From NCBI GenBank assembly GCA_018825665.1, contig JAHJEG010000005.1:31248-95247 (forward strand): a DNA stretch of 64,000 nucleotides, written 5' to 3'. This DNA is from a bacterium (GTDB taxonomy: Bacteria > Campylobacterota > Campylobacteria > Campylobacterales > Sulfurimonadaceae). Position numbers and translations under genes: made by a program. The notes below the pieces were generated by a model. That model was given only the letters and a program-made list of their open reading frames with translations. It had not been told where the DNA came from and searched no databases. Each line of letters begins with the position of its first letter. Within the stretch, counting starts at the first letter, position 1. Below are positions 207 through 50,847 of the stretch, in pieces.

Positions 207-650
207 ATGAAATATTATAGTTACGAAAATTTTAAAAACGATACAAATCAGTTGCTCAAACAGTTAAAAGAATTTAACCCAGAAGCAATAGTTAGCATAG
301 CCAGAGGCGGTCTGACTCTTTCACATGCCGTGGCTGAAGGCTTAGATGTAAGGGATGTGCAGAGCATCAGAACAGAGCTGTATGACAAAACCGAAAAAAG
401 GGAAAACCTTAGCATATACGGAGAATGTTCTTTTGGCGGGGTAAAAAGAGTTTTGGTCCTTGATGACATATCAGACAGCGGAGACACGCTCAAAGCCGTG
501 ATGAACCATCTGGCATGTGGATTTGAAGAGATAGAGTTCAGGTCCGCAACGCTTTTTTATAAAAAAACATCCGTATACGAACCGGATTTTTGGATCAATG
601 AAGCCGATGACTGGATAGATTTTTTTTGGGAGAGAGATTTTAAGAGTTAG
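207..650 (+). CDS. Phosphoribosyltransferase (Gpt/Hpt-like)
   Basis: This 147-residue cytoplasmic protein is a type I phosphoribosyltransferase that would transfer a nucleobase onto PRPP, probably in purine salvage. The PRPP-binding signature VLVLDDISDSGDTL lies near residues 82-95, and the N-terminal strand has the IVSIARGGL loop typical of xanthine/guanine enzymes. The length fits the short Gpt-like group. ATG 207 has no ribosome site and sits 7 bases after TATAAT, so the mRNA is probably leaderless. The stop codon overlaps the stop of the convergent cytochrome gene (647-650). The base specificity cannot be read from the sequence. Confidence 0.85.
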   Translation: MKYYSYENFKNDTNQLLKQLKEFNPEAIVSIARGGLTLSHAVAEGLDVRDVQSIRTELYDKTEKRENLSIYGECSFGGVKRVLVLDDISDSGDTLKAVMNHLACGFEEIEFRSATLFYKKTSVYEPDFWINEADDWIDFFWERDFKS

Positions 651-1009
651 TCGGCGTGATGTTCACTGCTGTTTTTAAAATCTGTTTCATAAATATATCC
701 GGAAATCGTTCTTAGCGTCTCAATATCAAAGGCAAGTTCAGGCATAAGCCCGTGTTTTTCTATGGCTTCGAGCATTATGGACGTTTCCTCTTTTGGATGC
801 AAGACCCAAGCAGACATATACTCCACGAAATCTTCCTTTTTGGGAAACGCCGATATGTATTTGTCTCTAAAATACACAACCGAGGGAGCAGATACGGTCT
901 TGTTCTCAAAATGGCAGGTTGTACAGTTGCCGTGAAAGAGCAGGGACCCCATCTCGTCCGCCTCTATATGGAGGATAAGTACAAAAAATACAAACAGAGC
1001 TTTTTTTAT
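647..1009 (-). CDS. Monohaem cytochrome c, periplasmic (apparent ATA start)
   Basis: This is a small class I c-type cytochrome. It has one haem-binding CTTCH motif and a methionine in GLMP about 60 residues later that fits the distal ligand. Translation from ATG 952 would remove the export signal. Reading upstream in frame gives a textbook signal peptide (KKALFVFFVLILHIEA) whose first codon is ATA at 1009-1007, 7 bases after AAGG and overlapping the TAA stop of the DjlA-like gene. An in-frame TAG lies just upstream, and no ATG, GTG or TTG is available before the signal sequence. With the ATA start the protein has 120 residues. CTG at 997 is the only alternative near the signal. The function is inferred to be periplasmic electron transfer. 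Confidence 0.75.
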   Translation of the reverse strand: MKKALFVFFVLILHIEADEMGSLLFHGNCTTCHFENKTVSAPSVVYFRDKYISAFPKKEDFVEYMSAWVLHPKEETSIMLEAIEKHGLMPELAFDIETLRTISGYIYETDFKNSSEHHAD

Positions 1010-1867: not shown

Positions 1868-2752
1868 ATGAAACATGTTAATGAATTAAACGCAGGCGTA
1901 AAATATATGCTGCTTTCCTCTTTTTTATTTGCTCTTATGGGAGCTTTTGCGAAGCTTGCGAGTGAACATATGAGTTCTTTGGAAGTTGTATTCTTTAGAA
2001 ACGTTTTTGGCGTGGTTTTAATCGGTCTTGCTATTTACAAGTCTCCTATGAAACATAGGGGAGGGAAACCCTTTTTACTCTTTTTTAGGGGATTTATGGG
2101 CTTTAGCGCCCTGCTTGCATATTTTTACAATATTGCAAATATCCCTCTTGGTGATGCCGCGACTTTTTCAAAGACGGCACCTATCTTTACAGCCATTTTC
2201 GCATGGATATTTTTGCATGAAAAAATAACATTCAAAGGATGGATAGCTGTATTTATAGGCTTTTTGGGAATACTCTTTATCACGCAGCCGACAGGCGGAT
2301 TCAGTAAATACGACCTGCTTGGAATCTTCAGCGGCGTAGGTGCTGCCCTTGCGTATACCTCTGTGCGGGAGCTTAGAAAATACTATGACACAAGAGCCAT
2401 TGTCATGTCCTTTATGCTGGTGGGAACCGTGGGCCCTTTAATCCTTCTGCTGATTTCACCCTATGTTTATATGCCTTCACTTGATTTTATGTTTGGTGAA
2501 TTCATTATGCCCGAGGGTATTGTCTGGTTGTATGTAGCCGGAATGGGGATTTTGGCTACCCTTTCGCAGTATTACATGACAAAGGCCTACGGTGAGACCA
2601 AGGCAGCTATTGTCGGTGTAGTCAGTTATACAAACATAATCTTTGCTATTTTTGTAGGAGTGGCTCTTGGGGATGCCTGGCCTGATATGATTGTGGCATG
2701 TGGAATTGTGCTGATTATCTTTGCTGGGATAATGGTTGCAAGGGCTAAATAG
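1868..2752 (+). CDS. EamA/DMT-family transporter
   Basis: This is an integral membrane protein of 294 residues with about ten hydrophobic segments arranged as two EamA repeats, the drug/metabolite transporter layout. The first repeat contains FRNVFGVVLIGL and the FLHEKITFKGWIAVFIGFLG stretch; the second ends in YTNIIFAIFVGVALGD and a final helix. A TTG at 1850 is in frame, but it lies within or before the TATAAT box, so ATG 1868 is preferred. The substrate (amino acid, nucleoside or drug efflux) cannot be determined. It converges with nrdG across a 9-base gap. Confidence 0.85.
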   Translation: MKHVNELNAGVKYMLLSSFLFALMGAFAKLASEHMSSLEVVFFRNVFGVVLIGLAIYKSPMKHRGGKPFLLFFRGFMGFSALLAYFYNIANIPLGDAATFSKTAPIFTAIFAWIFLHEKITFKGWIAVFIGFLGILFITQPTGGFSKYDLLGIFSGVGAALAYTSVRELRKYYDTRAIVMSFMLVGTVGPLILLLISPYVYMPSLDFMFGEFIMPEGIVWLYVAGMGILATLSQYYMTKAYGETKAAIVGVVSYTNIIFAIFVGVALGDAWPDMIVACGIVLIIFAGIMVARAK

Positions 2753-5870: not shown

Positions 5871-7040
5871 ATGTTTACTCCAACAAAACCCAAAAACTAT
5901 TTTTTATCTCAGGTTCACCAGCCGTTTTTTCTTTTTGGTGTCATCTATGCGGTTGTTGTTATGCTGCTGTTTATGCTTTCCTATAAAGGGATTCTCACGC
6001 TTAGGGTGGATACGCTCTCCTTTCACAGCTACTCACTGATCTATGTCGTATTCACGCAGTTTTTTACGGGGTTTATATTTACGACCTTTCCAAGGTTTAC
6101 CCAGGGTGAGGTGATCGGGCAAAAGAGTTATATGCGTGTTTTTATCATCCACCAAGCAGGTTCGCTGCTCTTTGTCCTTGGTTCGGTATATTCCATCTAT
6201 ATGCTTTATGGCGGCTTGTTCTTTTTGTTTTTTGCCAACAGCATGATCGTAAACATATTGCAAAAAATCTATATGCAGAGCCATACCAGCCTGAGAAGCG
6301 ATCCCAGGTGGATTCTCGTCGGTTTTTATTTCGGTGTTTTTGGTCACTTCCTGTTTATATTGTCTTTTTTACAGCTTGGGGTCAATGCCGCTCCTTTTGC
6401 CTTGAATCTTTATCTTGTCTTTGTCACTTTTTCTGTAGCCCAAAGGATGGTGCCTTTTTTTAGCCACTCCTTCGCCCCGAAAAATGAGAATTTTGCTCCG
6501 ATTGTTTTTATAGGGCTGCTCCTAAAAGTAGTCGCGAACTATCTCTCGCTTGTGTATGTGGAATCGATTATCGATATTGCCCTTGGACTTTATATCGGAT
6601 ATGAGATAAAAAGATGGAAGCTCGGCTTTAAAAACGGTGCCGCAATATTAAAGATACTTCATCTGTCTCTCTATTGGCTTCTCGTCTCTTTGATTTTGGG
6701 AGCCGTATTTCATCTTTTAGAGGGTGTATTTGGTTTAAACTTTATGCAGATGCAGGTGCATCTTTTGGCTCTTGGTTTTGTAACGACCATGCTTATCGGG
6801 TTTGGAACCCGTGTTACTTTGGGTCATTCGGGTCAGCCTCCACATGCCGACGGTATTACGCTGAAGATTTTTTATATTCTTCAGGCTGTCGTCATCGGGC
6901 GAATCATATTCTCTATTGCCATGGGTGCCCAGACGCAGATGTTCTGGCTTTTTGATCTTTCCAGCGCACTTTGGCTTGTATTGTTTGTCTTTTGGGCACT
7001 GCGTTTTGGACCGGTTTTGACAAGGGCTAAAAAGCTTTGA
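5871..7040 (+). CDS. nnrS: NnrS family haem/copper membrane protein
   Basis: The protein has 389 residues with about twelve hydrophobic segments and the conserved N-terminal NnrS pattern: HQPFFLFGVIYAV near residue 16, then a histidine in the second helix (FHSYSLIY) and TTFPRFTQ. Later helices carry the histidines in VHLLALGFVTT and GHSGQPPHADG. NnrS proteins bind haem and copper and protect against nitric oxide in denitrifiers, so nitrate or nitrite respiration is likely in this organism. It is monocistronic with its own promoter, divergent from nrdD. The gene contains one copy of the uptake-like motif (CACATGCC, 6841-6848). Confidence 0.88.
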   Translation: MFTPTKPKNYFLSQVHQPFFLFGVIYAVVVMLLFMLSYKGILTLRVDTLSFHSYSLIYVVFTQFFTGFIFTTFPRFTQGEVIGQKSYMRVFIIHQAGSLLFVLGSVYSIYMLYGGLFFLFFANSMIVNILQKIYMQSHTSLRSDPRWILVGFYFGVFGHFLFILSFLQLGVNAAPFALNLYLVFVTFSVAQRMVPFFSHSFAPKNENFAPIVFIGLLLKVVANYLSLVYVESIIDIALGLYIGYEIKRWKLGFKNGAAILKILHLSLYWLLVSLILGAVFHLLEGVFGLNFMQMQVHLLALGFVTTMLIGFGTRVTLGHSGQPPHADGITLKIFYILQAVVIGRIIFSIAMGAQTQMFWLFDLSSALWLVLFVFWALRFGPVLTRAKKL

Positions 7041-7126: not shown

Positions 7127-7918
7127 ATGAAATTGTTGGCTGGACCCTGTGTTATTGAGAGTGAAGAAAATATTTTTAAGATTGCCAAATCTTTAGAAAC
7201 TTATCATAATGATGCAGCGATTGATTTTTATTTTAAGTCTAGTTTTGACAAGGCAAACAGAACTTCATTGGAGAGCTTCCGCGGGCTTGGAATCGATGAG
7301 GGTCTGAGGATCTTAGAAAAGGTCAAAAATGATTTTGGCTACAAAATAGTAACGGATGTACATGAATCACAGCAGGTGGCTCAGGTGGCGGAAGTAGCGG
7401 ACATGCTCCAGATTCCCGCTTTTTTATGCCGTCAGACAGATCTGCTCGTGGCATGTGCAAAAACGGATAAGGAAGTAAATATCAAAAAAGGGCAGTTTAT
7501 AAACCCGCCCGATATGAAACACTCCGTTATGAAAGTCTTAAAGACGCGCGGCTGTGATGAAGTGAGTTATGAAAACTCCAAAAAATACGGAGTGTATCTT
7601 TGCGAGAGAGGTTCCTCTTTCGGATACGGAAACATTATCGTGGATATGCGCTCTTTGGTGATTATGAGAGAGTTTGCACCGACTATTTTTGATGCTACGC
7701 ACTCTGTTCAAATGCCGGGCTCTTTGGGCGGCAAAACAGGCGGAGACAGTTCTATGGTGCCTTATTTGTCAAAAGCTGCCGCGGCGGTTGGAGTGGACGG
7801 GTTTTTCTTTGAAACGCACTTCGACCCGAGTATAGCGTTGAGCGACGGGCCAAACATGATAAAACTTGACGAGCTAGAAGCTCTCATAGCAACGATTAAA
7901 AAAATTCAAGAAATTTAA
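7127..7918 (+). CDS. kdsA: 3-deoxy-D-manno-octulosonate 8-phosphate (KDO-8-P) synthase
   Basis: This 263-residue enzyme condenses phosphoenolpyruvate with arabinose 5-phosphate to make KDO-8-phosphate, the first committed step to the lipopolysaccharide inner core. The N-terminal [11 protein letters not shown] motif, the [10 protein letters not shown] substrate loop and the C-terminal [17 protein letters not shown] segment are diagnostic. It is the first gene of the kdsA-ribH-nusB block common in Campylobacterota; the ribH GTG follows 9 bases after its stop. Confidence 0.95.
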
Positions 7919-8798: not shown

Positions 8799-11207
8799 AT
8801 GCTGAAGTTTGCCCTTTCATTTTTGTTTTTTTGTACGCTTGTATCGGGGGCAAACGAATGTATTACATGCCATAAAGGGATAGAACCCATTCGCGAGGAA
8901 AACTCGGGGATGATGCGGGCTATACTTGAAGTGGCACAAAAAGCAGGATATGAAGGCAATGACTGTATCGTCTGCCACGGAGGCAATCCGACTGCCAAAA
9001 CGAAAAACGAAGCACATTCGGGCACGGTAGAATACTTTAAGAATAACAAGGGTCCAAAAGAGTATTATCCCGCGCCCGGCAGTACCTGGATCAATCACAA
9101 CACATGCGGGATGTGCCACGAAAATCAGGTGAACTCCCAAATGAATTCTCTTATGATGACCGAACAGGGAAAGATTCAGGGCGCTCTTTGGAGTTTTGGA
9201 GCTAAAAACGGCTACGAGCACGATATAGGAAACTACAAAACAAAAAACCCGCAAGACCCACATAAACGCCTCGGAACTGATTCTTACAAAAAATATATGG
9301 ATAAACTCTCACGTATGGAGCCTCAGGCATTTCCAAAAGAGATGCAGGAACTGCCGGATGCACCGACAGCCGAAGAAGTTGAAAAAGACCCCTCTTTGGC
9401 AGTGTATACGTATCTCCGCCAGGAGTGTCTGCGATGCCATACCGGTTCAAAAGGGCGTTTGGTTCGGGGTGATTACAGGGGTATAGGCTGTGCCTCCTGC
9501 CATATTCCGTACTCCAACAACGGCTATTATGAGGGAGATGACAAGAGTATAGACAAAAAAAATCCTGGGCATCTTCTGGTGCACTCCATTCAGTCTTCCC
9601 GCGGGACAAAGGTGAAAGTGCATGAACAAGAGTATTCGGGTGTTCCGGTCGAGACATGTTCCACATGCCATAATCGCGGAAAGCGTATAGGTGTATCATA
9701 TCAGGGTTTGATGGAGCAAGCTTATTCTTCCCCCTTTGACGATGAGGGAAATGAACAGCCTAAGCTCCATACGAAACGATATATGCATATGCAAGAAGAT
9801 ATCCATTTTCAAAAAGGGATGCTTTGTCAGGACTGTCACACATCCAACGATATGCACGGTGACGGATTTTTAAGCGGGGCAAATCTTGCAGCCGTTGAGG
9901 TGGAGTGTCAGGATTGTCATGGAACTACAAAGGCTTATCCTTGGGAACTGCCTCTTGGATATTCGGATGAGTTTAACACAACTGCAATGACAGGAGAGGC
10001 CAGGGGAACGACCAAAACGGTATCCGAGTATCTTAAACAGGGCAGTGTGAGTGAAGCAAATGAGGGGTATTTACTTACCGCCAGAGGGAACCCTTTCGTC
10101 CATGCCACCCGAGTCGGCGAACAAGTGAAAATAGAGCTTGCAAGCGGCAAAGATATACTTTTGACACCTCTTAAAAAGTTAAAAGAGGAGGAAAAACTCT
10201 CCAAAAAAGGGCTTTTAGCCATGGACGGTATAGCTGCGCATAATGACAATATGGAATGCTACACCTGCCACGCTGCCTGGGCTCCCCAGTGTTACGGCTG
10301 CCATGTGAAGATCGACTACTCCAAGGGAAAACAAAATCCGGATTATCTCAAAGCTTCCCATGATCAGGATATCCACGGAAGAACAGGCGGGATGAAGGAT
10401 CTTAAAAAGTATCTTGTAGACGGAGAGGTAACCGAGAGCAGAAGTTTTATGCGCTGGGAAGATCCCCCCTTGTCTCAAAACGGTGAAGGGCGTATCAGCC
10501 CTACGATCCCTGGATGTCAGACTACGATTACCGTGATTGGAAAAGATGGAAAAGCACTTTTGCAAAACCATATCTTTAAAGTTCCACATGCCGAGGGTGC
10601 CGCAGAAGAAGGACAAAATGCTATAGATATGTCCCCCGTTCAGCCGCATACCATTACCAAAGAGGCGAGAACATGTGAGAGCTGTCATACGAATCCAAAA
10701 TCCATGGGGATGGGAATAAGCGGTTCAAAAACCACAAAAGACCCATCAATGAAAACTATTGTGGATATTATGAGTGCGGATGCAAAAGTGATGCCGGGCA
10801 TACTCGATACTCAAATCGAAGCGATACCCAATCTGCAGTTTGATTATTCAAGATTTTTGGATGAAAATGCAACGCAGCTTCAAACAGTCGGACATCACTT
10901 TACGCTTTCGGGGCCCTTGAGCAAAGCACAACGCGACAAGCTCGATAGAAGCGGAATCTGTTTCTCCTGTCACCAGGATATCCCCAAGGGAGATCTGGGC
11001 GTATCTGCTTTGAATCATATGGCGGAGATGGCGGAGATAAACATCGACAACACGAGGCATAAAGAGATAGTAAATAAGAGCTTAAAAATCTCAGCTTGGA
11101 CACAGCTCTTAGGTGGAATTATTACAGGAGTGCTTATTATGCTGTTTGTATATTACAAATTTATAAAAGAAGCGCCCCAAAATCCAAGAAACAAAGGATG
11201 GAAATAG
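8799..11207 (+). CDS. Membrane-anchored dodecahaem cytochrome c
   Basis: The protein has 802 residues, with an N-terminal signal peptide (LKFALSFLFFCTLVSG), twelve CxxCH haem motifs (CITCH, CIVCH, CGMCH, CLRCH, CASCH, CSTCH, CQDCH twice, CYTCH, CYGCH, CESCH, CFSCH) and a C-terminal transmembrane helix (LLGGIITGVLIMLFVYYKF) followed by a short basic tail. This indicates a periplasmic electron-transfer or reductase protein anchored in the inner membrane. All sites are the standard type, with no CxxCK. I cannot assign a substrate. Similar large multihaem proteins include octahaem nitrite and tetrathionate reductases, but the haem count and anchor differ. A DUF302 gene overlaps its stop. It carries two exact TTCCACATGCC copies (9659, 10582). 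Confidence 0.85.
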   Translation: MLKFALSFLFFCTLVSGANECITCHKGIEPIREENSGMMRAILEVAQKAGYEGNDCIVCHGGNPTAKTKNEAHSGTVEYFKNNKGPKEYYPAPGSTWINHNTCGMCHENQVNSQMNSLMMTEQGKIQGALWSFGAKNGYEHDIGNYKTKNPQDPHKRLGTDSYKKYMDKLSRMEPQAFPKEMQELPDAPTAEEVEKDPSLAVYTYLRQECLRCHTGSKGRLVRGDYRGIGCASCHIPYSNNGYYEGDDKSIDKKNPGHLLVHSIQSSRGTKVKVHEQEYSGVPVETCSTCHNRGKRIGVSYQGLMEQAYSSPFDDEGNEQPKLHTKRYMHMQEDIHFQKGMLCQDCHTSNDMHGDGFLSGANLAAVEVECQDCHGTTKAYPWELPLGYSDEFNTTAMTGEARGTTKTVSEYLKQGSVSEANEGYLLTARGNPFVHATRVGEQVKIELASGKDILLTPLKKLKEEEKLSKKGLLAMDGIAAHNDNMECYTCHAAWAPQCYGCHVKIDYSKGKQNPDYLKASHDQDIHGRTGGMKDLKKYLVDGEVTESRSFMRWEDPPLSQNGEGRISPTIPGCQTTITVIGKDGKALLQNHIFKVPHAEGAAEEGQNAIDMSPVQPHTITKEARTCESCHTNPKSMGMGISGSKTTKDPSMKTIVDIMSADAKVMPGILDTQIEAIPNLQFDYSRFLDENATQLQTVGHHFTLSGPLSKAQRDKLDRSGICFSCHQDIPKGDLGVSALNHMAEMAEINIDNTRHKEIVNKSLKISAWTQLLGGIITGVLIMLFVYYKFIKEAPQNPRNKGWK

Positions 11208-11638
11208 TGAAAAAGTTTTTGTTGTTTTTGGCATGTGCAATAACACTAAGTGCCAATGAGCTAATAATCAAACAAAGCAAATACGGTGTATCCCAGACTA
11301 TACAGAATATTAAAGAGATAGTGACAAAAGAGGGGATGGGCGTATTTGCGATTATAAACCATCACGGAAATGCCGGCATGGTGGGGATGGAGATGCGTGA
11401 GGCCAAGCTTATAATCTTTGGCAATCCCAAGATGGGAACAAAACTGATGCAGGAAAACATACTGCTGGGGCTTGATCTGCCTATGAAGGTATTGGTTTTC
11501 AGGGATAAAGATGAAAAAGTCAAACTGGCATACAGAAACGCTTCCTGGCTAAAAGATGCACATGCCCTGAAAAACGAAACACTTATACAAGAAGCAGACA
11601 AGAGATTAGACGATATTACAGACAAAGCAAGCAAATGA
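11207..11638 (+). CDS. Exported DUF302 protein
   Basis: The protein has 143 residues, with a signal peptide (KKFLLFLACAITLSA) followed by a DUF302 domain, a small alpha/beta fold often encoded beside sulfur or haem proteins. GTG 11207 is preferred because AAAGGA lies 8 bases upstream and it begins the signal peptide directly; ATG 11198 would add three residues. The G of the GTG is also the last base of the cytochrome stop codon, so the pair is coupled and probably acts together in the periplasm. The C-terminus overlaps mqnC by 4 bases (ATGA). No catalytic role is known for the family. Confidence 0.8.
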   Translation: MKKFLLFLACAITLSANELIIKQSKYGVSQTIQNIKEIVTKEGMGVFAIINHHGNAGMVGMEMREAKLIIFGNPKMGTKLMQENILLGLDLPMKVLVFRDKDEKVKLAYRNASWLKDAHALKNETLIQEADKRLDDITDKASK

Positions 11639-14052: not shown

Positions 14053-15849
14053 ATGAATTACACAAAAGAGCAAGAAGAAAAGTTTAAAAAACTAGGTATC
14101 AACAGCATCTCGGAACTTGCTCTTAGTGTTCCCTCCTCATACGAAGACTTTCGTATTCATGATACACTCAAACTCCACATGCCGCAGGTGATAGATGCGA
14201 CGGTAGAGTCGGTGCATCGCGCTCCAAATTCCATACAGATAACATTTTTCGCACATAATTTCGGATACAGGATCCAAGGCGTGCTGTTTCGCCCCAAGCC
14301 CTATATGATGCATCAGTTTAAAGCGGGTGAGAGAGATTATTTTTATGGGCTCATCGACTGCAAGGGGGGAGTCTGCAGTATGAGTATGCCCAAAAAAGTG
14401 ATCAAAACAGGCGCCATTTATCCAAAATACAAATCCAGTCTCAGAAGTGACGTCATGAACCGTTTTATAGAAAAAAACCTTAATGCTGAGAACTTAAAGG
14501 CGGAGGGTTTAAAAGATGAGATAGTCACAGAACTTTTAAAGCCGCATTTCCCGCGAGATGAATATTTGCAAAGTAAAGAGCTTGACACAAAAATACTGCA
14601 TGCCCTGAAGTATACGGAGCTGTTTTGCTATATGAAACTGCTCGCGGGAAAAAGACGCTACTTTAAGCCTTTGATATCCAAAGAGGGGCATTACAGCCAA
14701 TGGGCAAAGAGTCTGCCCTTTAAGCTTACGGATGAGCAGATAAGTACCATAGAGGATATAAAAAAAGATTTCGCCAAAGAGGTGGCGGCAAAGCGTATGG
14801 TCGTGGGTGATGTGGGAAGCGGAAAGACCATGGTTATTTTAGCTTCAGCCCTTATGATGATGCCTGAGCGCTCAATACTTATGGCGCCCACGACCATCCT
14901 CGCAAACCAACTTTTTGAAGAAGCGCTAAGATTTCTGCCCGGAATCAGATGTGTTCTTGTCAGCAATAAGAGCAAAAAAATAGATTTGCAAGAGTTCGAT
15001 TTTATAATCGGCACACATGCCTTGCTCTACAGAGAACTTCCACATGCCAAGCTGGTAATGGTGGATGAACAGCACCGTTTTGGAACCCAGCAAAGAAATC
15101 TGCTTGAGAAACTAGTGAGCAGCGGCGATAAAAAACCGCATTTTTTACAGTTTTCCGCCACCCCCATTCCAAGAACGCAGGCTATGATAGAAACGGCACA
15201 TATTGACGTAAGCCTGATTACCACCACCCCTTTTAAGAAAAATATTGCCAGCAAGGTGATTCACAAGAGCGATTTTAAGGAGTTGCTCGAACATATAAAA
15301 GATGAGATACAAAAGAAGCATCAGGTGTTACTCGTCTATCCGCTGGTGGAGCAAAGCCGGCTTATGGAGTATCAGAGTATTGAAGAAGCCCGCGGCTACT
15401 GGGAAAAAAACTTTGAGGGTGTGTATGTGACACACGGAAAAGACAAGGAAAAAGAGCAGGTACTTCTGGATTTTAGAGAGAAGGGGACGATACTTATAGC
15501 CACAACCGTTGTGGAGGTGGGTATTTCTTTGCCAAGACTCAGTACCGTGGTTATAGTGGGTGCGGAGAGGCTCGGGCTTTCAACCCTGCATCAGCTCAGA
15601 GGCAGAGTGAGCAGAACAGGGCTTCAAGGGTATTGTTATCTTTATACAAATCAAACTTCATCTGCAAGACTTGAGCAGTTTGTGGAGACTTTCAGCGGAT
15701 TTGACATAGCAAATCTGGATTTGAAGTTTAGAAAAAGCGGAGACTTGCTAAAGGGCTCAAATCAAAGCGGAAGTCAGTTTAAATGGGTTGATATTGCCGA
15801 AGACGAAGAGATTGTAAAGAGTGTAAAAAAAGATTTGAATATTATCTGA
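14053..15849 (+). CDS. recG: ATP-dependent DNA helicase RecG
   Basis: This 598-residue branch-migration helicase remodels stalled forks and Holliday junctions. An N-terminal wedge (OB-fold) domain occupies about residues 50-150. The helicase lobes follow, with Walker A GDVGSGKTM (near residue 255), VDEQHRFG in place of DEAH, SATPIPRT, and motif VI QLRGRVSR. The protein is shorter than E. coli RecG (693), as usual in this phylum. It holds four copies of CACATGCC, one an exact TTCCACATGCC, and ends one base before an inverted motif pair. Confidence 0.94.
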   Translation: MNYTKEQEEKFKKLGINSISELALSVPSSYEDFRIHDTLKLHMPQVIDATVESVHRAPNSIQITFFAHNFGYRIQGVLFRPKPYMMHQFKAGERDYFYGLIDCKGGVCSMSMPKKVIKTGAIYPKYKSSLRSDVMNRFIEKNLNAENLKAEGLKDEIVTELLKPHFPRDEYLQSKELDTKILHALKYTELFCYMKLLAGKRRYFKPLISKEGHYSQWAKSLPFKLTDEQISTIEDIKKDFAKEVAAKRMVVGDVGSGKTMVILASALMMMPERSILMAPTTILANQLFEEALRFLPGIRCVLVSNKSKKIDLQEFDFIIGTHALLYRELPHAKLVMVDEQHRFGTQQRNLLEKLVSSGDKKPHFLQFSATPIPRTQAMIETAHIDVSLITTTPFKKNIASKVIHKSDFKELLEHIKDEIQKKHQVLLVYPLVEQSRLMEYQSIEEARGYWEKNFEGVYVTHGKDKEKEQVLLDFREKGTILIATTVVEVGISLPRLSTVVIVGAERLGLSTLHQLRGRVSRTGLQGYCYLYTNQTSSARLEQFVETFSGFDIANLDLKFRKSGDLLKGSNQSGSQFKWVDIAEDEEIVKSVKKDLNII

Positions 15850-15880
15850 TTCCACATGCCAAGCTTTGCCTGGCATGTTC
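15850..15880. terminator. Inverted pair of uptake-like motifs between recG and hpf, likely bidirectional terminator
   Basis: TTCCACATGCC (15850-15860) is followed 11 bases later by GGCATGT (15872-15878). An 8-base stem, ACATGCCA with TGGCATGT, can form around a 9-base loop (AGCTTTGCC). It lies immediately after the recG stop and 15 bases beyond the convergent hpf stop. The T-tracts are weak, so termination is inferred mainly from position. Arrangement of uptake sequences as terminators is characteristic of Neisseria and Haemophilus. Confidence 0.6.
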
Positions 15881-24501: not shown

Positions 24502-24601
24502 CTACCATCTGACCTTGTTTATTACTTAAAGTGAATGGATTTGTTCAAATATGATACAAATAAACAGAGTGAAGCCTTGGCATACGGCTGTAAAAAGTTT
24601 T

Positions 24602-31764: not shown

Positions 31765-33131
31765 AACACACTAAAAACAATAAACAGCACAAGTGCGATG
31801 AAGCCGCTGATAAGTGCGTAGGGGAGTTGCGTCCTGACATGCTCTATCACTTCGCAGTCGCTTGCCATAGAAGATATGATGGTCGTATCGGATATGGGCG
31901 AGCAGTGGTCACCAAAGACTCCGCCTGAGATAACCGCTCCGATACAAAGAGCGACATCCGCATCCATCCCGACCGCCATAGGCACCGCTATGGGAATCAT
32001 GATGCTAAAAGTCCCCCAGCTTGTACCCGTAGAAAAGGCCATGACCGAGCTTAGCAAAAAAATGACTGCTCCAAGCAAAGAGATGCTCAAACTATCACTT
32101 GCCAAAGATGCAAGATACAAACCTGTCTTAAGCTCACCCGTCACCTCTCCGATAGCAAAGGCAAATAAGAGTATGGCAGCAATCGGGAGAAGCTTCTTTG
32201 CTCCAAGATACGAAGTCTTGCCCCAGTAGGAGAAGCTCATATTTTTTGTGCCGACAAAATACAAAAGGGTAAAAACAAGGGTTGCGATCATGGTATAAAA
32301 AATGGAACTTGAACCGCTGCCTTTTAAAATATTCCCATCGCCGGTGATATACAAAAATAAAAAAGTAAAAAATACTATCAGAACAATCGGCAAAACCATA
32401 AAATACATACTCTCACTTTTTTGATGCCTGCTTTTTGTTTTGTCCGGCGTGTATCGTGTAGTTTTCATCGCCCCTATGTCTGCATTGAACCAAATATACA
32501 CAAAGGTAACAAGCAAAGCACTCATGGCATAAAAGTTATAAACAACGGAGTCTATAAGAATATCTACGCTGTTTCCGCCAATCATTCCCTGTGTGATTTG
32601 GGCAGAGATCAGACCAAGCAGCAAGGCTCCCCAGCCGTTAAATACAATCAAAGAACTGATAGGCGCTGAAGTGGAATCGCATACAAAGGCAAGCTTGGCA
32701 TGTGGAATCTTGTAGGCATCGCACAGGGGTTTTCCCACTGCACCGGAAATAAGGGCAGTTATCGACGATTCGACAAAGATGACGACACCCACGATATAGC
32801 TGAGCATCAAAGCAGAGCGGGGGGATTTGACAAAAGATCTTTTATTTTGAACAAACTCTACAAATCCGCCCACACCTCCTGATCTTTCTATCAATGCCAT
32901 AATACTTCCGACTAAAACCGCAAAAGCCAAGGTCTTGAGTATCCATTCCGTAGAGAGCAGGGTGAGAAAAAGTGAAATCAATGCATCAAAAGAGTCTAGA
33001 ATATTAAAGCCGTTTATCACCAAGAGCCCCAAGATTATTCCGCCGAGCAAAGATAAAAGTACATTTTTTGTATAGATAGCCAAGGCAATGGATAATAGAG
33101 GGGGAAGCAGAGATAAGGGCGAGAGTTCTAT
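31761..33131 (-). CDS. NhaC-family Na+/H+ antiporter (apparent ATA start)
   Basis: This membrane protein has about ten to twelve helices with NhaC hallmarks: VGVVIFVESSITALISG, DSTSAPISSLIVFNGWG and GGVFGDHCSPISDTTIISS. The only common start codon (TTG 33083) would begin inside the first conserved segment and has no ribosome site. Upstream in frame the sequence reads ELSPLSLLPPLLSIALAIYTKN, the usual NhaC N-terminus, beginning at ATA 33131-33129, 6 bases after AGGA. With that start the protein has 456 residues. The acetyltransferase gene ends just upstream at 33140. Sodium export fits a marine organism. Confidence 0.78.
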   Translation of the reverse strand: MELSPLSLLPPLLSIALAIYTKNVLLSLLGGIILGLLVINGFNILDSFDALISLFLTLLSTEWILKTLAFAVLVGSIMALIERSGGVGGFVEFVQNKRSFVKSPRSALMLSYIVGVVIFVESSITALISGAVGKPLCDAYKIPHAKLAFVCDSTSAPISSLIVFNGWGALLLGLISAQITQGMIGGNSVDILIDSVVYNFYAMSALLVTFVYIWFNADIGAMKTTRYTPDKTKSRHQKSESMYFMVLPIVLIVFFTFLFLYITGDGNILKGSGSSSIFYTMIATLVFTLLYFVGTKNMSFSYWGKTSYLGAKKLLPIAAILLFAFAIGEVTGELKTGLYLASLASDSLSISLLGAVIFLLSSVMAFSTGTSWGTFSIMIPIAVPMAVGMDADVALCIGAVISGGVFGDHCSPISDTTIISSMASDCEVIEHVRTQLPYALISGFIALVLFIVFSVF

Positions 33132-35278: not shown

Positions 35279-36874
35279 CTACTCGTCTTCTTTGCTCATG
35301 CGGTCCTTAGCTTCTATCCCCATCAAACCAAGTCCGGTTTTAAGAGATAGTGCTACAACCATAAGCAGTTTTAAAAGTTTTGCTTCATCTTCAGTTCCTA
35401 TGATTCTGCAATCATAATAAAACTTATGCAAAGATGCAGCAAGTGATTTGAGATAATCAGGAAGTTTTTGAACCTGTCTTGAGATAAAAGCGTCTTCCAC
35501 AATCTCAGGAAGAAGCAGAGCGTCAAATAAAAGCGAATCTGCATTTTCACCCAAACCTTTCAGTGAAGCTTCTAAAATCTCTTTTTCACTTAAATCACTT
35601 TTACCGATAATAGTCTTTATTCTGGCATGTGCATATTGTATATAAAAAATAGGGTTTGAACTGTCTTGCTTTTTGAACTCTGCCAAATCAAATTCAAGAG
35701 CCGTATCGCTCTTTTTTGAAGCAAAGATAAATCTTAGCGCATCAGAACCTATCTCCTCTACTATATCGCTCATAAGAATGACATTGCCGGCTCGTTTACT
35801 CATCTTGTAGGGTGCACCGTCTTTTAAAAGACTCACCATCTGAGAGAGCAAGACTTCAAGTTTCTTCGAGTCATAGCCCAAAAATTCAACCGCTGCATTT
35901 ACACGAGGGATATAACCGTGGTGGTCTGCACCCCAGATGTTGATGTAGTGGTCATATCCGCGCTCAAATTTTTGATTGTGATAGACGATATCGCCTGCAA
36001 GATATGTAGGTCTTCCGTCTTCACGCACCACGACTCTGTCGTGGTCATCTCCCTTGGACTCAGAGGCTATCCAGACTTTTGAGTCTTTTTCGTAGACCCC
36101 TTCACCCATCTTGCCAAGAACTCTGTTCCAGTCATCATATAAAGAGGACTCGTTGACAAAGGTGTCAAAAAATATATTTGTATCACCCAAATCTTTGACG
36201 ATTATCTGCATAACCTTATCTTTTGCCCAAAGAGCAAGCTCTTTTTGACGAGACTCGTCCGAGAGAATACCTTTGCCGAATTTTTCAACAGCGCCTGAAA
36301 CAAGTTCTGCTAAATACTCACCTCTGTAATAACTCTCAGGGTATTGAACATCTTCACCAAGAACACTGGAACGGCCCTCAAGCTGAATAGAGAGGCCAAG
36401 AAGGTCTATCTGGTTGCCCGCATCATTCACATAGTATTCTGCCGTAATATCATATCCGAGGTGTCTGCCTAAACGAAGAAGAGTGTCTCCGTAAACAGCA
36501 CCGCGGGCATGACCGATATGAAGAGGTCCGGTTGGATTTGCGCTTACAAATTCCAAAAGGATTTTTTCATCTCTGTCTTGTTTGGCGAATTGTGTCGTAT
36601 TGTCCAATGCCCATGTAGCGTATTCGCTTAAAAAGTTTTCACTTAAACGGAAGTTTAAATACCCTTTTACAGACTCAACACTGGTAAAAATCTCATTGTC
36701 ATCAAATGAAGAAGCCAGTTCTTCGGCGATGGCCATAGGAGACTTTCTGAGTTCCTTTGCCAAAGAAAAAGCTATTGGAGTAGCAAAATGACCAAAAGAG
36801 CGGTCTTTTGGTTTTTCTAAAACAACTTCACGACCAAATTTTTCACGCAAAAGCGCCGATACTCGTTGTTTCAA
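35279..36874 (-). CDS. argS: Arginyl-tRNA synthetase
   Basis: This 531-residue class I synthetase charges tRNA-Arg. It has the HIGH motif in PLHIGHARGA and the KMSK motif in YKMSKRAGN. The N-terminal Add-1 domain carries RSFGHFATPIAF, and the C-terminal anticodon-binding domain ends with the usual KLLKLLMVVALSLKTGLGLMGI. The start is TTG 36874, 3 bases after the tatA stop; no good ribosome site is visible, so coupling to tatA is likely. Confidence 0.95.
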   Translation of the reverse strand: MKQRVSALLREKFGREVVLEKPKDRSFGHFATPIAFSLAKELRKSPMAIAEELASSFDDNEIFTSVESVKGYLNFRLSENFLSEYATWALDNTTQFAKQDRDEKILLEFVSANPTGPLHIGHARGAVYGDTLLRLGRHLGYDITAEYYVNDAGNQIDLLGLSIQLEGRSSVLGEDVQYPESYYRGEYLAELVSGAVEKFGKGILSDESRQKELALWAKDKVMQIIVKDLGDTNIFFDTFVNESSLYDDWNRVLGKMGEGVYEKDSKVWIASESKGDDHDRVVVREDGRPTYLAGDIVYHNQKFERGYDHYINIWGADHHGYIPRVNAAVEFLGYDSKKLEVLLSQMVSLLKDGAPYKMSKRAGNVILMSDIVEEIGSDALRFIFASKKSDTALEFDLAEFKKQDSSNPIFYIQYAHARIKTIIGKSDLSEKEILEASLKGLGENADSLLFDALLLPEIVEDAFISRQVQKLPDYLKSLAASLHKFYYDCRIIGTEDEAKLLKLLMVVALSLKTGLGLMGIEAKDRMSKEDE

Positions 36875-43845: not shown

Positions 43846-45719
43846 AGCACACCCCTTAGGGCCCAATATAAATACACAAATCCCGATACAACTCCAATCA
43901 GCATATACAGGGCATAAAAACGGACATTCCCGTTTTCAAGATAGGAAAAAAGTATCCCCGCTCTTGCATAGTAGAGTGCACTGAGGTTGATGAGTCTGTC
44001 TATAATCCCATGGCTGATTTTTTGTTCAAAGAAAATGGAGAGATAGTGTAACGGCTGAGTGATGAGCAGAGTATATATCTCATCGACGTAGAACTTCTTC
44101 GCGACGAGATTCTCTTGGCTCTCTTTGTGTATCGCTTGGGTATAGGCGTATCTTTTGTATGTATAGAGTATCACGCCGAGGATAAGCAGAGTGTTTACAG
44201 AGATAAGCAAAAGTTCTTTGGCATGTGGAAGCAGGAGTTCTTTGTCCAAAAGATTTAGCCAATTTGAAATATTTAGGTTTCCTCCAAAGAGCTCAGGCAG
44301 ATTGAGCAGACCCGCAAAGACGGAAAGAACAGTTAAGACCACCATGGGATACAGCATGGATTTGCTGCTCTTTTTCGTGCTTTGTGTTTTTTGGCTGTAA
44401 AAGAGTACGAATACCATCCTGAACATATAATACGCCGTGAGCAAAGATGCGACAAGCGCCATAAGAAACAGTTCCACATGCCCGCTTGCATAAAGCGCGC
44501 CCATAATCGCATCCTTGGAGAAAAAAGCTGAGAGCGGAGGGATGGCGCTGATACTCAAGGATGCTGTGAACATCATCACAAAGAGCAGGGGGAGAGATTT
44601 TCTAATCCCCTGAAGCTCTCTGATATCCTGCTTGTGATGAAAAGCGACTATGATATAGCCCGCCGCCATAAAGAGCAGACCTTTAAAAAAGGCATGTGTA
44701 AACATATGAAACAGCGCTGTCGAGTACGCGCCTACACCCAAAGCCATAAACATAAATCCAAGCTGGCTCATTGTGGAGTATGCGAGGATCTTCTTGATGT
44801 CATACTGTCTTGTCGCCACAATAGCCGCGAACAAGGCACTAAAGGCACCCACATAAGCGATAAAGAGTGAGATGTCGGGTGTCATAGTATATAAGGGAGC
44901 AAATCTTGCGACCATATACACACCCGCAGTTACCATTGTTGCCGCATGTATAAGTGCAGATACGGGTGTCGGTCCGGCCATCGCATCAGGCAGCCAGACA
45001 AAAAGAGGAATCTGGGCAGATTTCCCCATTGCTCCTACAAAGAGTAAAAATGCGATAAGACTCAGCATGGAAGGGTCAATCTGTGCAAGGCTTAAAAATA
45101 TGGAATCAAAACTGAATCCGGCACTCCCTGCTTCGATAAAAAGAAGCATTAAAGCGCTTAAAAAACCAAAATCTCCGACTCTGTTTACTATAAAAGCCTT
45201 ATTTCCGGCATAGGTGTTTTGGATATCTTCAAAATAAAAGCCTATCAGCGCATAGGAGACAAGCCCGACGCCTTCCCAGCCGATAAACATAATGATGGGA
45301 TTATCCGCCAAAACCAGTAAAAACATAAAAAAGATAAAGAGATTGAAGTATGTGAAAAATCTTCCGTAACTCTTGTCCTTATCCATGTATCCGCTTGCAT
45401 ACAGATGTATCAAAAAGCTTACGGGCGCCACGAAAAGAAGCATAAAAGAGCCAAGTGCGTCCGCTTTGAGTGCAAGCTCAATAGTGAATTCACCGATACT
45501 CAGCCATGTAAAAAGGTGTGATGTAAAAACCTGAGCGTGAAAATAACTCTGATAACTGACAATCAGGGCAAGAACGGCACTGACACCCGAACCTGTCAAA
45601 GCCAAAAATGTGAAGAGAGACTGTCTAGGATTTAAAAACAGCATATTGATGAAAAAAATCAAAGCCGCACTGATGAGAGGCGACAAAAGCAAAGTGCTTA
45701 AAAGGGTGCTGTCGCTCAT
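43842..45719 (-). CDS. nuoL: Complex I subunit NuoL
   Basis: This largest antiporter-like subunit has 625 residues with a long C-terminal lateral-helix region. FIGWEGVGLVSYALIGFYFE, SAQIPLFVWLPDAMAGPTPVSALIHAATMV and YSTMSQLGFMFMALG are diagnostic. It overlaps nuoK by 4 bases. Three uptake-like motifs lie within it (44220, 44472, 44691), two of them exact 11-mers read in different frames (PHA and HVE). Confidence 0.96.
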   Translation of the reverse strand: MSDSTLLSTLLLSPLISAALIFFINMLFLNPRQSLFTFLALTGSGVSAVLALIVSYQSYFHAQVFTSHLFTWLSIGEFTIELALKADALGSFMLLFVAPVSFLIHLYASGYMDKDKSYGRFFTYFNLFIFFMFLLVLADNPIIMFIGWEGVGLVSYALIGFYFEDIQNTYAGNKAFIVNRVGDFGFLSALMLLFIEAGSAGFSFDSIFLSLAQIDPSMLSLIAFLLFVGAMGKSAQIPLFVWLPDAMAGPTPVSALIHAATMVTAGVYMVARFAPLYTMTPDISLFIAYVGAFSALFAAIVATRQYDIKKILAYSTMSQLGFMFMALGVGAYSTALFHMFTHAFFKGLLFMAAGYIIVAFHHKQDIRELQGIRKSLPLLFVMMFTASLSISAIPPLSAFFSKDAIMGALYASGHVELFLMALVASLLTAYYMFRMVFVLFYSQKTQSTKKSSKSMLYPMVVLTVLSVFAGLLNLPELFGGNLNISNWLNLLDKELLLPHAKELLLISVNTLLILGVILYTYKRYAYTQAIHKESQENLVAKKFYVDEIYTLLITQPLHYLSIFFEQKISHGIIDRLINLSALYYARAGILFSYLENGNVRFYALYMLIGVVSGFVYLYWALRGVL

Positions 45720-48278: not shown

Positions 48279-49618
48279 CGCAATTGCTCCAAAAGCTCAC
48301 TCAGGCTTGGGTTTTTATCCCTGAATCTTGTCGCATAAAACTTTTGGGTTATCCCCTCACAGTTGATGAGTGTTCCCGTGTCATGGGCAAAATTTGCAAA
48401 ACCAAAACAATATCCACATGCCGGGGGCAGATGTGTACTTGTGAACTGGACTGATTTTTTATTGCCAAATTCCTGATGTTTTAAAAGTGTATGGTCAAAG
48501 TTGAGTATCAGCTCTGCCTCTTGTAAAGCGGCATCAAACTCTTCTTGGCATGTGCAAATCCCAAGCTTTTTCACCGAGGCGAGATTTGCACTCTTATCAT
48601 TTGTTTTGAGCCACCCATCGCCGAAACTCTCATCGTAGTAGGCAAGACAGAAGAGCTTTATATTGTGCGTTTGACACAATGTTTGGATTGCCTGGAGCTG
48701 TTCAAGACTCAGCGACGGAGAAGCCAAAGCAAGTTTTTTATCCTCTTTAAGCAGTTCCTTTAGATCCTCTATGCTTGAAGAGGTGCCCTTAAAACTGTTG
48801 TTGAGTTCTTTATAGCTCAGTCTGCCGTAATCGCATAAAAAGGATTGGTTTATTCGGGCATTTCTTCTGGCTCTGAATCTGTGTATCTTCTCGCGGGTAT
48901 ATTTTGTCTCATTGTAATCGATACTGATATTGCATCCGCGGGAACAGCCGTGGCAGATACTCTTAGAAGTGTCTAAAAACCATACACGCTGTTTGAATCT
49001 GAAATCTTTTGAGGTTAAAGCTCCCACGGGGCAGAGTTCAACTACGTTCATGGCATAAGGGTTGTTAAGCTCGTGCCCGGGTGCTACGCCGACTCTCGCA
49101 CTGTCTCCCCGTCCTATAATCCCCAGCTCACCTGTTTTTGTAATCTCCGAGGTAAAACGTGTGCATCTGGTGCAAAGCACACATCTCTCCTGATCAAGCA
49201 TAACATTCGAGCCAAGTTCTATAGCCTTGCCTTTTTTTGTTTTTGGGGTAGTGAGGTGACTCTCATACAAACCGTAATCCATATAATAGTCCTGAAGTTT
49301 GCATTCCCCTGCCTGATCACAGATAGGGCAGTCTACGGGGTGGTTTAAAAGTTCAAGTTCTAAAATAGAGCGTTTTACTTCGTTGATGTTCTCACTCTTG
49401 GTTATCACTTCAAGGTTTTCTTTTACAAAGGTGTCGCAGGCGATCTGCGGACGTTTTGCTCCCTTGATCTCTACCATGCACATTCTGCAGTTACCGTCTG
49501 CACCCAAATCCTGATGATAACAAAAATGAGGGATGTTTATGTTGTTGTTTAACATCACATCTATGAGAAGTTCACCCTCTTCGCACTCTATGGAAATGTC
49601 ATCAATCGTGATCCTCAC
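48275..49618 (-). CDS. nuoG: Complex I subunit NuoG, short form
   Basis: This 447-residue protein has an N-terminal [2Fe-2S] ferredoxin domain (CYHQDLGADGNCRMCMVE), CPICDQAGECKLQDY and CVLCTRCTRF clusters, and CHGCSRGCN at about residue 225. The molybdopterin-like domain that makes typical NuoG 650-900 residues long is reduced to about 200 residues, but the terminal DTGTLINCEGITQKF motif of that domain is kept. GTG 49618 is chosen because it overlaps the nuoF TGA by 4 bases and has GGAG upstream; GTG 49627 is the alternative. Confidence 0.92.
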   Translation of the reverse strand: MRITIDDISIECEEGELLIDVMLNNNINIPHFCYHQDLGADGNCRMCMVEIKGAKRPQIACDTFVKENLEVITKSENINEVKRSILELELLNHPVDCPICDQAGECKLQDYYMDYGLYESHLTTPKTKKGKAIELGSNVMLDQERCVLCTRCTRFTSEITKTGELGIIGRGDSARVGVAPGHELNNPYAMNVVELCPVGALTSKDFRFKQRVWFLDTSKSICHGCSRGCNISIDYNETKYTREKIHRFRARRNARINQSFLCDYGRLSYKELNNSFKGTSSSIEDLKELLKEDKKLALASPSLSLEQLQAIQTLCQTHNIKLFCLAYYDESFGDGWLKTNDKSANLASVKKLGICTCQEEFDAALQEAELILNFDHTLLKHQEFGNKKSVQFTSTHLPPACGYCFGFANFAHDTGTLINCEGITQKFYATRFRDKNPSLSELLEQLR

Positions 49619-50847
49619 TGTATACACTCCAGAAATTCATTCTCAAAATGCTTTAAAAAGCCGTTTATGACACCGCTTGCAGCAGGAGCGAAAACGCAAA
49701 TCGTTTTTCCGTTCATGCTTTTTGAGACTGACTTTAAAATCTTTAGATCCTCTGTTGTCGCTGTTTTTGCGATGAATTTGTCAAGTGTCTTATCCACCCA
49801 GGAGGTTCCCTCGCGGCAAGGGGTACACTGTCCGCATGATTCGTGATGATAAAATCTGAGCAGATTTTTCAAGGCCTTGACCATAGAGGCATCTTCGTCC
49901 AGAAGTATCATTCCCCCTGTTCCAAGCTCTGTGCCCAGACTTTTCAGGCTCTCATAATCAAGCTTTGCTTCTTGAACCAGATGTGCGGGAAGTATGGGGG
50001 TTGAAGCTCCGCCGGGGATGACGGCTTTTAACATTTTGCCGTTTTTGACTCCGCCGCCGAGGGTATGTATATATTCCCACATGCCAAGACCAAACTCAGC
50101 CTCGTAGACACCCGGTTTTTCCACATGCCCGCTTAAAGCGAACAAAAGAGTTCCCGGAGATTTTTCGGTGCCGTACGCTCTGTAGGCTTCTGCGCCGTTT
50201 TCCACGATAAAAGGGACCGAGGCAATTGTTTCAACATTGTTGACAAGAGCGGGTTCTCCAAAATAAGACTCCGCCTGAGGTGTATGCGGTTTGAGTCTCG
50301 GATGCCCGCGATTTCCTTCAAGAGATTCCAAAAGAGCGGATTTTTCACCGCAGATATAAGCACCTCCGCCTCTATGGACGGTGATATCCAGCGGGTATTG
50401 TGCGCCAGAGCCTATAATGTTTTTTTCGTATGCCTCATCTATGGCAGACTGTAAAATATCGCTGAACTCCTCATATTCTCCCCGCACATATATATAAGAG
50501 ATATGTGAACCGATTGCGTAGCAGGTGCAGATGATTCCCTCTATCAGAAGATGAGGGTCTTTTGAGAGAATCTGTCTGTCTTTAAATGTTCCGGGTTCAC
50601 TCTCATCCGCATTGACGACAAGGTATTTTGTCCCCTGCGTATCAGCGGCCAACTGCCATTTGCTTCCGGCATGTGCGCCGCCGCCCCCTTTTCCGCGAAG
50701 ACCGCTTTGTGAGATTGTATCGATAATCTCCCGGGGCTTTTGTAAAAAAAGATTTTCAAGTGATGCATATCTTCCGTTTTCAAGCGCTACAGCCATAGTA
50801 TGGGAATTTAAAATCTCAAAATTTTTACTGACAATCTTAGTTATCAT
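49615..50847 (-). CDS. nuoF: Complex I subunit NuoF (NADH/FMN site)
   Basis: This 410-residue flavoprotein has an FMN/NAD segment SGLRGKGGGGAHAGSKW, GGGAYICGEKSALLESLEGNRGHPRLKP, and the N3 cluster motif SCGQCTPCREGTSW. The first loop differs from the common GRGGAGFPTGLKW form, so the dinucleotide pocket may be altered. Presence of NuoF with NuoE is notable because many Campylobacterota lack both. ATG 50847 is 11 bases inside nuoE. It contains three uptake-like motifs (50078, 50119, 50668). Confidence 0.94.
   Translation of the reverse strand: MITKIVSKNFEILNSHTMAVALENGRYASLENLFLQKPREIIDTISQSGLRGKGGGGAHAGSKWQLAADTQGTKYLVVNADESEPGTFKDRQILSKDPHLLIEGIICTCYAIGSHISYIYVRGEYEEFSDILQSAIDEAYEKNIIGSGAQYPLDITVHRGGGAYICGEKSALLESLEGNRGHPRLKPHTPQAESYFGEPALVNNVETIASVPFIVENGAEAYRAYGTEKSPGTLLFALSGHVEKPGVYEAEFGLGMWEYIHTLGGGVKNGKMLKAVIPGGASTPILPAHLVQEAKLDYESLKSLGTELGTGGMILLDEDASMVKALKNLLRFYHHESCGQCTPCREGTSWVDKTLDKFIAKTATTEDLKILKSVSKSMNGKTICVFAPAASGVINGFLKHFENEFLECIQ

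What the first reader, a model, noticed from the sequence alone, without database searches (positions are those of the whole stretch)
322..50675. Candidate DNA uptake sequence: 12 exact copies of TTCCACATGCC and 32 of its core
The core CACATGCC appears 32 times in 64 kb in both orientations; random expectation is about 2 (64,000 x 2 / 4^8). The full 11-mer appears 12 times against about 0.03 expected. Copies inside genes are read as P-H-A, S-T-C-H, A-C-G, H-V-E and G-M-W, that is, in several frames and on both strands, so protein or codon constraint cannot explain them. Positions 1-3 of the 11-mer degrade gradually (ATCC, CTCC, GCACATGCC), as expected for a sequence kept by biased uptake. This matches the DUS of Neisseriaceae and USS of Pasteurellaceae. 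For Campylobacterota I know only of methylation-based recognition in Campylobacter jejuni, so a sequence-based system here would be new. A Chi-like or FtsK-orienting role is less likely because orientations are mixed (19 plus, 13 minus) and inverted pairs occur.
Basis: partly seen in the sequence, partly recalled or inferred. Interest (0 to 1): 0.95.

Follow-up and report, generated by a model that had tools for sequence, protein, structure and literature searches.

The report
Likely DNA uptake code in Sulfurimonas
This likely Sulfurimonas genome carries one short DNA word 535 times, and relatives carry altered versions of it, some at the very same gene positions, so the word is likely a self-recognition tag for taking up DNA, something so far reported for only two other bacterial families.

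Summary
TTCCACATGCC occurs 535 times in the 2.34 Mb genome (reversed control 0). It shows no significant strand bias against GC skew, is three times denser outside ORFs than inside, and forms inverted terminator-like pairs. De novo counts in relatives show one dialect of an ACATG-core family: TTCCACATGCC, TTCCACATGCTAAG, TTCTACATGTAG, TTACATGTAA and, in a second family (f20), the palindromic consensus CTTTACATGTAAAG. In codon alignments two dialects share 6 columns against 0.20 expected, so the words arise by point mutation and are rewritten in place. These are genomic marks of Neisseria DUS and Haemophilus USS, in another phylum. Uptake was not tested and no receptor was found; type II secretion, pilin charge and D12 methyltransferases do not explain the whole family. 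The main rival is a methylation-linked iterated word like cyanobacterial HIP1, which fits the palindromic dialects better than the asymmetric one in this window. Seven of 135 genus genomes are instead rich in an unrelated, Chi-like word, TGCGTGAG. Verdict: a likely new uptake-sequence system.

The parts
322..329 (+). core CACATGCC
512..519 (-). core CACATGCC
2695..2705 (-). full TTCCACATGCC
6841..6848 (+). core CACATGCC
7450..7457 (-). core CACATGCC
9659..9669 (+). full TTCCACATGCC
10582..10592 (+). full TTCCACATGCC
11230..11237 (-). core CACATGCC
11559..11566 (+). core CACATGCC
14176..14183 (+). core CACATGCC (inside recG)
15014..15021 (+). core CACATGCC (inside recG)
15038..15048 (+). full TTCCACATGCC (inside recG)
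15850..15860 (+). full TTCCACATGCC just after the recG stop
24604..24614 (+). full TTCCACATGCC, left arm of an inverted pair
24624..24634 (-). full TTCCACATGCC, right arm of an inverted pair
24601..24637 (-). 14-bp perfect hairpin made by the inverted pair, after the stop of fliW, followed by AAACTTTTT: terminator-like
   Evidence: MFE -21.6 kcal/mol, z -5.25
28445..28452 (+). core CACATGCC
28808..28815 (+). core CACATGCC
28886..28893 (-). core CACATGCC
28926..28933 (+). core CACATGCC
28967..28974 (-). core CACATGCC
29077..29084 (+). core CACATGCC
31559..31569 (+). full TTCCACATGCC
32697..32707 (-). full TTCCACATGCC
35624..35631 (-). core CACATGCC
44220..44230 (-). full TTCCACATGCC
44472..44482 (+). 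full TTCCACATGCC
44691..44698 (-). core CACATGCC
48415..48422 (+). core CACATGCC
48547..48554 (-). core CACATGCC
50078..50085 (+). core CACATGCC
50119..50129 (+). full TTCCACATGCC
50668..50675 (-). core CACATGCC

Best explanation
TTCCACATGCC is repeated 535 times in this genome and likely works as a DNA uptake sequence: a surface protein of the competence machinery is predicted to bind it, so that DNA of the cell's own kind would be imported and recombined more often. Shown here: the enrichment, the dialect family in relatives, substitutions rather than insertions at orthologous sites, balanced orientation, inverted terminator-like pairs, and a ComEC gene in the same genome. Inferred: biased uptake followed by homologous recombination spreads and purifies the copies (molecular drive), and dialects differ because the receptor's preference drifted, probably from an older palindromic form (TTACATGTAA, CTTTACATGTAAAG) to the asymmetric TTCCACATGCC. 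Not identified: the receptor, which by analogy to Neisseria ComP would be a minor pilin.
For: 535 copies, reversed control 0; 0.46 core sites per kb over 417,554 bases. De novo k-mers put this word on top here and close variants on top in G036 (TTCCACATGCTA), the same word in G419, G307, G401, TCTACATGTA(G)-type words in G032, G429, G215, TTACATGTAA in G160, G011, G434, and CTTTACATGTAAAG as consensus in G055 of f20. Genus counts: A (TCCACATGY, 200 or more) in 16 of 135 genomes, B (TACATGTA, 200 or more sites) in 21 of 135, both only in G502. Order sample of 398: B in 39 of 44 f20 genomes, 3 of 17 of other f1 genera, 4 of 29 of this genus, 0 of 308 elsewhere. Codon alignments: A and B share 6 columns, 0.20 expected, 0 of 2000 circular shifts reach it; at one priA column two A genomes read TTTCCA-CATG-CCG and two B genomes TTTCTA-CATG-TAA. 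Pairs within 20 bp, inverted:direct: 9:1 here, 6:2 G419, 4:1 G036, 2:0 G307. 1.19 per kb outside ORFs against 0.38 inside, p=1e-9. ComEC in 123 of 135 genus genomes, this one included.
Against: No uptake experiment exists. No receptor was found: pilins near priA/comEC are mostly acidic in A, B and motif-poor loci alike, and ComEC is near-universal in the genus, so it does not discriminate. The longest motif-free stretch held (14.7 kb) encodes ordinary housekeeping genes in the 9 of its 10 listed ORFs that I scanned, so depletion in acquired DNA was not shown. The excess outside ORFs is absent or not significant in G307 (p=0.33), in the two B samples of this genus (p=1.0, 0.77) and in the two f20 samples (p=0.11, 0.39). 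Uptake words known to me are not palindromic (recalled; for USS stated in PMC12616744, passage). One of three word-pair controls, the reversed words, also shared 1 column against 0.01 expected, so amino-acid constraint explains part of the co-location. 92 of 135 genus genomes pass the threshold for none of the three words. G503 (99% complete) has 383 A-type words but gave no ComEC match.
Confidence: 0.7

Rival explanations
1. A methylation-linked iterated sequence like HIP1 of cyanobacteria: an orphan methyltransferase and a repair process would create and keep the word; uptake would play no part.
For: The B dialects are palindromes. HIPs have lineage-specific replacement words, matching methyltransferases and single-base deviations at their ends (PMC4390886, passages). 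HIP1 is said to propagate by substitutions (title of a cited paper), as here.
Against: The word in this window is asymmetric, with a strict core longer than a usual methyltransferase site. D12-class methyltransferases do not track it: matched in 10 of 16 A genomes, 15 of 21 B genomes and 77 of 135 overall; none listed for motif-rich G160, G011, G032, G434, G441, and only a partial match (E 5e-5) here. CATG is not enriched outside the motif (observed/expected 0.73 here). Inverted terminator-like pairs are not a HIP feature known to me (recalled).
Confidence: 0.15
2. A site for a nucleoid, segregation or replication protein (Noc-, MatP- or ParB-like), bound at hundreds of places.
For: Fourteen-base palindromic consensus in f20.
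Against: Far more copies than such sites usually have (recalled), an asymmetric form in this genome, and loss or replacement between species of one genus. Not tested directly.
Confidence: 0.06
3. A Chi site recognised by AddAB/RecBCD.
For: Short, abundant, lineage-specific word.
Against: No bias to the G-rich strand (73:97), perfect inverted pairs, palindromic sister dialects, conserved 10-11 bases. The unrelated TGCGTGAG of G060 does look Chi-like (31:13 on the G-rich strand, p=0.01).
Confidence: 0.05
4. Only a terminator motif, a dispersed mobile element or codon/protein constraint.
For: Some copies form hairpins between genes and codon phase is uneven.
Against: 145 of 191 sites lie inside ORFs on either strand; no conserved sequence beyond about five flanking bases; aligned relatives differ by substitutions.
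Confidence: 0.02

Closest known systems
DNA uptake sequence (DUS) of Neisseriaceae, receptor ComP
   Same: Very abundant short word in both orientations, inverted terminator-like pairs, dialects that share a short core (CTG there, ACATG here) (PMC3630211, passages).
   Different: Unrelated sequence, other phylum, some dialects palindromic, no ComP-like receptor identified, uptake not tested.
Uptake signal sequence (USS) of Pasteurellaceae
   Same: Copies evolve by point mutation and are under-represented in coding sequence (PMC7811141, passages; here).
   Different: Different word; USS is not palindromic (PMC12616744, passage); depletion in newly acquired DNA not shown here.
Methylated RAATTY recognition in Campylobacter jejuni
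   Same: Same phylum; own DNA is favoured for uptake by a sequence-linked tag (PMC10046745, passages).
   Different: There the tag is a methylated 6-mer; here it is a long, strongly enriched word. Methylation was not testable here.
HIP1 (GCGATCGC) of cyanobacteria
   Same: Highly iterated short word with lineage-specific replacements (PMC4390886, passages).
   Different: HIP1 is palindromic and goes with methyltransferases; the word here is asymmetric and D12 methyltransferases do not track it.

Membership tests
Uptake sequence (DUS/USS) | short word strongly over-represented genome-wide | tested here: met
   535 copies, reversed control 0
Uptake sequence (DUS/USS) | both orientations, no replication-strand bias | tested here: met
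   281/254; 73:97 against GC skew, p=0.08; strand counts over 13 contigs are borderline uneven (p=0.05)
Uptake sequence (DUS/USS) | copies arise by point mutation | tested here: met
   codon alignments of priA, comEC, recG; 6 shared A/B columns against 0.20 expected
Uptake sequence (DUS/USS) | inverted pairs that look like terminators | tested here: met
   sequence only: 9 inverted against 1 direct pair within 20 bp; fold of one pair; termination itself not tested
Uptake sequence (DUS/USS) | denser between genes than inside | tested here: met
   this genome p=1e-9, G419 p=1e-6, G036 p=0.04, G137 p=0.03; not significant in G307, in two B samples of this genus and in two f20 samples
Uptake sequence (DUS/USS) | depleted in newly acquired DNA and rRNA genes | tested here: inconclusive
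   longest motif-free stretch holds ordinary genes; rRNA genes not examined
Uptake sequence (DUS/USS) | dialects that follow phylogeny | tested here: inconclusive
   RecG tree of 30 genomes puts most A genomes in one weakly held group and pairs some B genomes; G458 and G036 unplaced, 9 of 27 inner forks open
Uptake sequence (DUS/USS) | competence machinery present | tested here: met
   ComEC in this genome and in 123 of 135; pilin pair by priA and comEC in G307 and G055; competence itself not tested
Uptake sequence (DUS/USS) | dedicated sequence-specific receptor (ComP-like minor pilin) | tested here: inconclusive
   no pilin or secretion gene examined tracked the motif
Uptake sequence (DUS/USS) | the word raises DNA uptake or transformation | not testable with these tools
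   needs an experiment
HIP-type iterated palindrome | the word is a palindrome | tested here: not met
   TTCCACATGCC is not one; the B dialects are
HIP-type iterated palindrome | matching methyltransferase present | tested here: inconclusive
   D12 class does not track the word; other classes not searched
Chi site | bias to the leading (G-rich) strand | tested here: not met
   73:97

The most novel reading that the evidence does not exclude
Campylobacterota run a third, independent DNA uptake code. It spans two families, began as a palindrome read by a symmetric receptor (CTTTACATGTAAAG), and in one Sulfurimonas clade became a one-sided word (TTCCACATGCC) by rewriting hundreds of sites in place.
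Probability: 0.5. Interest if true: 0.9.

Novelty: new variant of a known kind. Interest (0 to 1): 0.82.

Why it matters
A 2025 paper calls Neisseriaceae and Pasteurellaceae the only families known to tell own from foreign DNA by short enriched motifs at this first step (PMC12616744, passage). A third case in another phylum would allow a test of whether such codes always evolve by the same drive. Its dialect series, from palindrome to asymmetric word within one genus, would be a natural experiment on how a receptor and hundreds of genomic sites change together. The bacteria are mostly environmental (record titles), which would move the question away from mucosal pathogens.

Tried and rejected
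Type II secretion as the machine behind the word: the GspK-like protein of this genome matches 78 of 135 genus genomes, 13 of the 16 A genomes but only 8 of the 21 B genomes (not B-rich G160, G366, G215), and also A/B-poor G009 and G031. Rejected as the determinant of the whole family; a link to the A dialect alone is not excluded.

Electropositive pilin as receptor: soluble-domain charge of pilins near priA/comEC does not separate A, B, C and motif-poor loci.

D12 methyltransferase as driver: 10 of 16 A, 15 of 21 B, 77 of 135 overall; no clear link.

Foreign DNA in motif-free gaps: 9 of the 10 ORFs listed in the largest gap were scanned; they are LptF/LptG, a pyridoxal-dependent decarboxylase, a HAD hydrolase, chorismate mutase/prephenate dehydratase, an aminotransferase, FliF, FliH, DXP synthase and a GGDEF/EAL protein.

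AGATGC/AGCATCTA-type words in G493, G395, G378, G349 and weak words in G009 and G031: a few-fold over a Markov model; not followed.

Seeded motif refinement was clean for the A genomes but drifted to simple or codon-like patterns, with high reversed controls, for other seeds; I rely on raw k-mer counts instead.

First RecG tree was wrong because minus-strand loci were translated on the plus strand; replaced. One search ended with a script error at the fourth of twelve groups. The pair count held duplicate genomes and was replaced.

Name of f20: not obtained. I suspect Sulfurovaceae, from memory only.
Full report
CHECK OF THE OBSERVATION. CACATGCC occurs 32 times in the 64 kb window (shuffle mean 1.36) and TTCCACATGCC 12 times (mean 0.04). 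In the whole 2.34 Mb genome the 11-mer occurs 535 times, 281 forward and 254 reverse; the same letters read backwards occur 0 times. In 386,929 bases of this genome an unsupervised k-mer ranking puts this word and its shifts at the top. The profile of 173 core sites reads a.TTCCACATGCC(A/G).(A/G), with information fading within about five bases on either side.

ANATOMY. In 417,554 bases (18% of the genome) there are 191 core sites. In one search, 145 lie inside ORFs (0.38 per kb) and 46 outside (1.19 per kb), p=1e-9, on joined contigs, gave 146 and 45. Inside ORFs they read with the gene 70 times and against it 76 times. Codon phases are uneven, as expected if proteins limit where the word can sit. 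Neighbouring sites within 20 bp are inverted 9 times and direct once. The pair at 24604-24634 makes a 14-bp perfect hairpin at 24601-24637 after the stop of fliW, followed by AAACTTTTT. Single-base variants of the 11-mer are found almost only at positions 1 and 3 (37 and 25, against 116 exact); positions 4-10 have 3 in all.

STRAND. Against local GC skew 73 sites lie on the G-rich and 97 on the C-rich strand (p=0.077; 170 of 191 sites had enough skew); with 3-kb half-windows 75:85 (p=0.48). G036 59:65, G419 19:12, G307 17:11, none significant. Strand counts over the 13 contigs are borderline uneven (p=0.05). This is not the strong leading-strand bias expected of Chi or KOPS.

WHO. A scan of named genomes with an alignment of ComEC proteins kept the best 80 of 359 relatives; most titles say Sulfurimonas, the rest Helicobacteraceae, Campylobacterales, Sulfuricurvum, Sulfurimonadaceae or less. 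I take the genus as Sulfurimonas (inference).

RELATIVES AND DIALECTS. Among 60 genomes searched, G000 included, the exact 11-mer is found 33 times in G036 and at most 7 times in any other relative. De novo counts in stretches of relatives gave the same word in G419, G307 and G401, TTCCACATGCTA in G036, TCTACATGTA(G)-type words in G032, G429 and G215, and TTACATGTAA in G160, G011 and G434. In 80 kb of G055, from another family (f20), the consensus is the palindrome CTTTACATGTAAAG. Over 135 genus genomes, A (TCCACATGY, 200 or more) is met in 16 and B (TACATGTA, 200 or more sites) in 21; only G502 meets both. By chance about 2.5 would, so this exclusivity alone is weak. In an order-wide sample of 398, B passes 200 in 39 of 44 f20 genomes, 3 of 17 of other f1 genera, 4 of 29 of this genus and 0 of 308 of the other families; TCCACATG passes 200 in 4 of 29 of this genus and 0 of 369 others. 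In a RecG tree of 30 genomes B occurs in f20, in two other f1 genera and in several clades of this genus, while most A genomes fall in one weakly held group; many forks are open. The simplest reading is that B is older and A derived (inference).

IN-PLACE REWRITING. Codon alignments of priA, comEC, recG and neighbouring genes hold 123 A and 81 B sites on 38 and 50 distinct columns; 6 columns are shared against 0.20 under circular shifts (0 of 2000). Of three control word pairs two share none and the reversed words share 1 against 0.01, so amino-acid constraint contributes. The slices show substitutions, not insertions: at priA column 2206 both A genomes read TTTCCA-CATG-CCG, two B genomes TTTCTA-CATG-TAA, a third TATCTA-CATG-TAG, and a genome of f20 CTCATA-CATG-TAA.

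MACHINERY. ComEC (PF03772) is found in 123 of 135 genus genomes, this one included, about 25 kb before the window on the same contig. A pilin pair sits by priA and comEC in G307 and in f20; in this genome a comparable pair ends a short contig. The window holds a minor-pilin-like cluster at 16495-18475 beside a 2003-aa protein. No gene that I tested singles out a receptor: gsp cluster (13 of 16 A, 8 of 21 B), pilin charge.

RIVALS. The strongest rival is a HIP1-like, methylation-linked word; the paper on HIPs reports replacement words and matching methyltransferases (PMC4390886, passages). The palindromic B dialects fit this, the asymmetric A dialect does not. D12 methyltransferases do not track A or B and CATG is not enriched outside the motif, but other classes were not searched. 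Chi is disfavoured by strand balance, inverted pairs and palindromic dialects.

A THIRD WORD. G060, poor in A and B, has TGCGTGAG 44 times in 100 kb (expected 1.8) and 962 times in its genome; 7 of 135 genus genomes exceed 200, and the locus of the named Sulfurimonas indica NW8N has 7 in 21 kb. It leans to the G-rich strand 31:13 (p=0.01) and has little flank and no close inverted pairs. It may be a Chi site and is not counted as evidence here.

LITERATURE. [quoted passage not shown] 'DNA uptake sequence' with Campylobacterota or Sulfurimonas gave 0 papers; 'uptake sequence' with Sulfurovum gave one, which names Sulfurovum only in its reference list; the listings showed no title or abstract start that reports such words in these bacteria. 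The library holds only open-licence papers, so this is not proof of absence. Campylobacter jejuni depends on methylated RAATTY (PMC10046745, passages).

VERDICT. A real, strong and lineage-wide feature. Of ten features listed for uptake sequences six are met, three inconclusive, and the decisive one, uptake itself, is untested. Confidence in the uptake reading 0.7.

Noticed in passing
G060 stretches L276-L280; genus counts: Unrelated word TGCGTGAG: 44 in 100 kb against 1.8 expected, above 200 copies in 7 of 135 genus genomes; leans to the G-rich strand, so Chi-like.
   Followed up: partly
window 16495-24480: Minor-pilin-like cluster and a 2003-aa protein with a sub-threshold DUF7305 match; pilin-like genes also lie near recG in seven of the other genomes searched. 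No copy of the word for 8.7 kb.
   Followed up: partly
L171 6682-16802: gsp-type (type II secretion) cluster of this genome: GspD and GspG over their cut-offs, GspE and GspF below, other members by eye; its GspK-like protein is patchy in the genus.
   Followed up: partly
G493, G395, G378, G349 stretches: Words around AGATGC/AGCATCTA are several-fold enriched; perhaps a further weak dialect, perhaps a codon effect.
   Followed up: no
G503: 99% complete genome with 383 A-type words but no ComEC match: perhaps competence was lost, or the gene is split.
   Followed up: no
G344 (f20): TCCACATG 25 forward and 111 reverse: one-sided, perhaps a repeat array rather than scattered sites.
   Followed up: no
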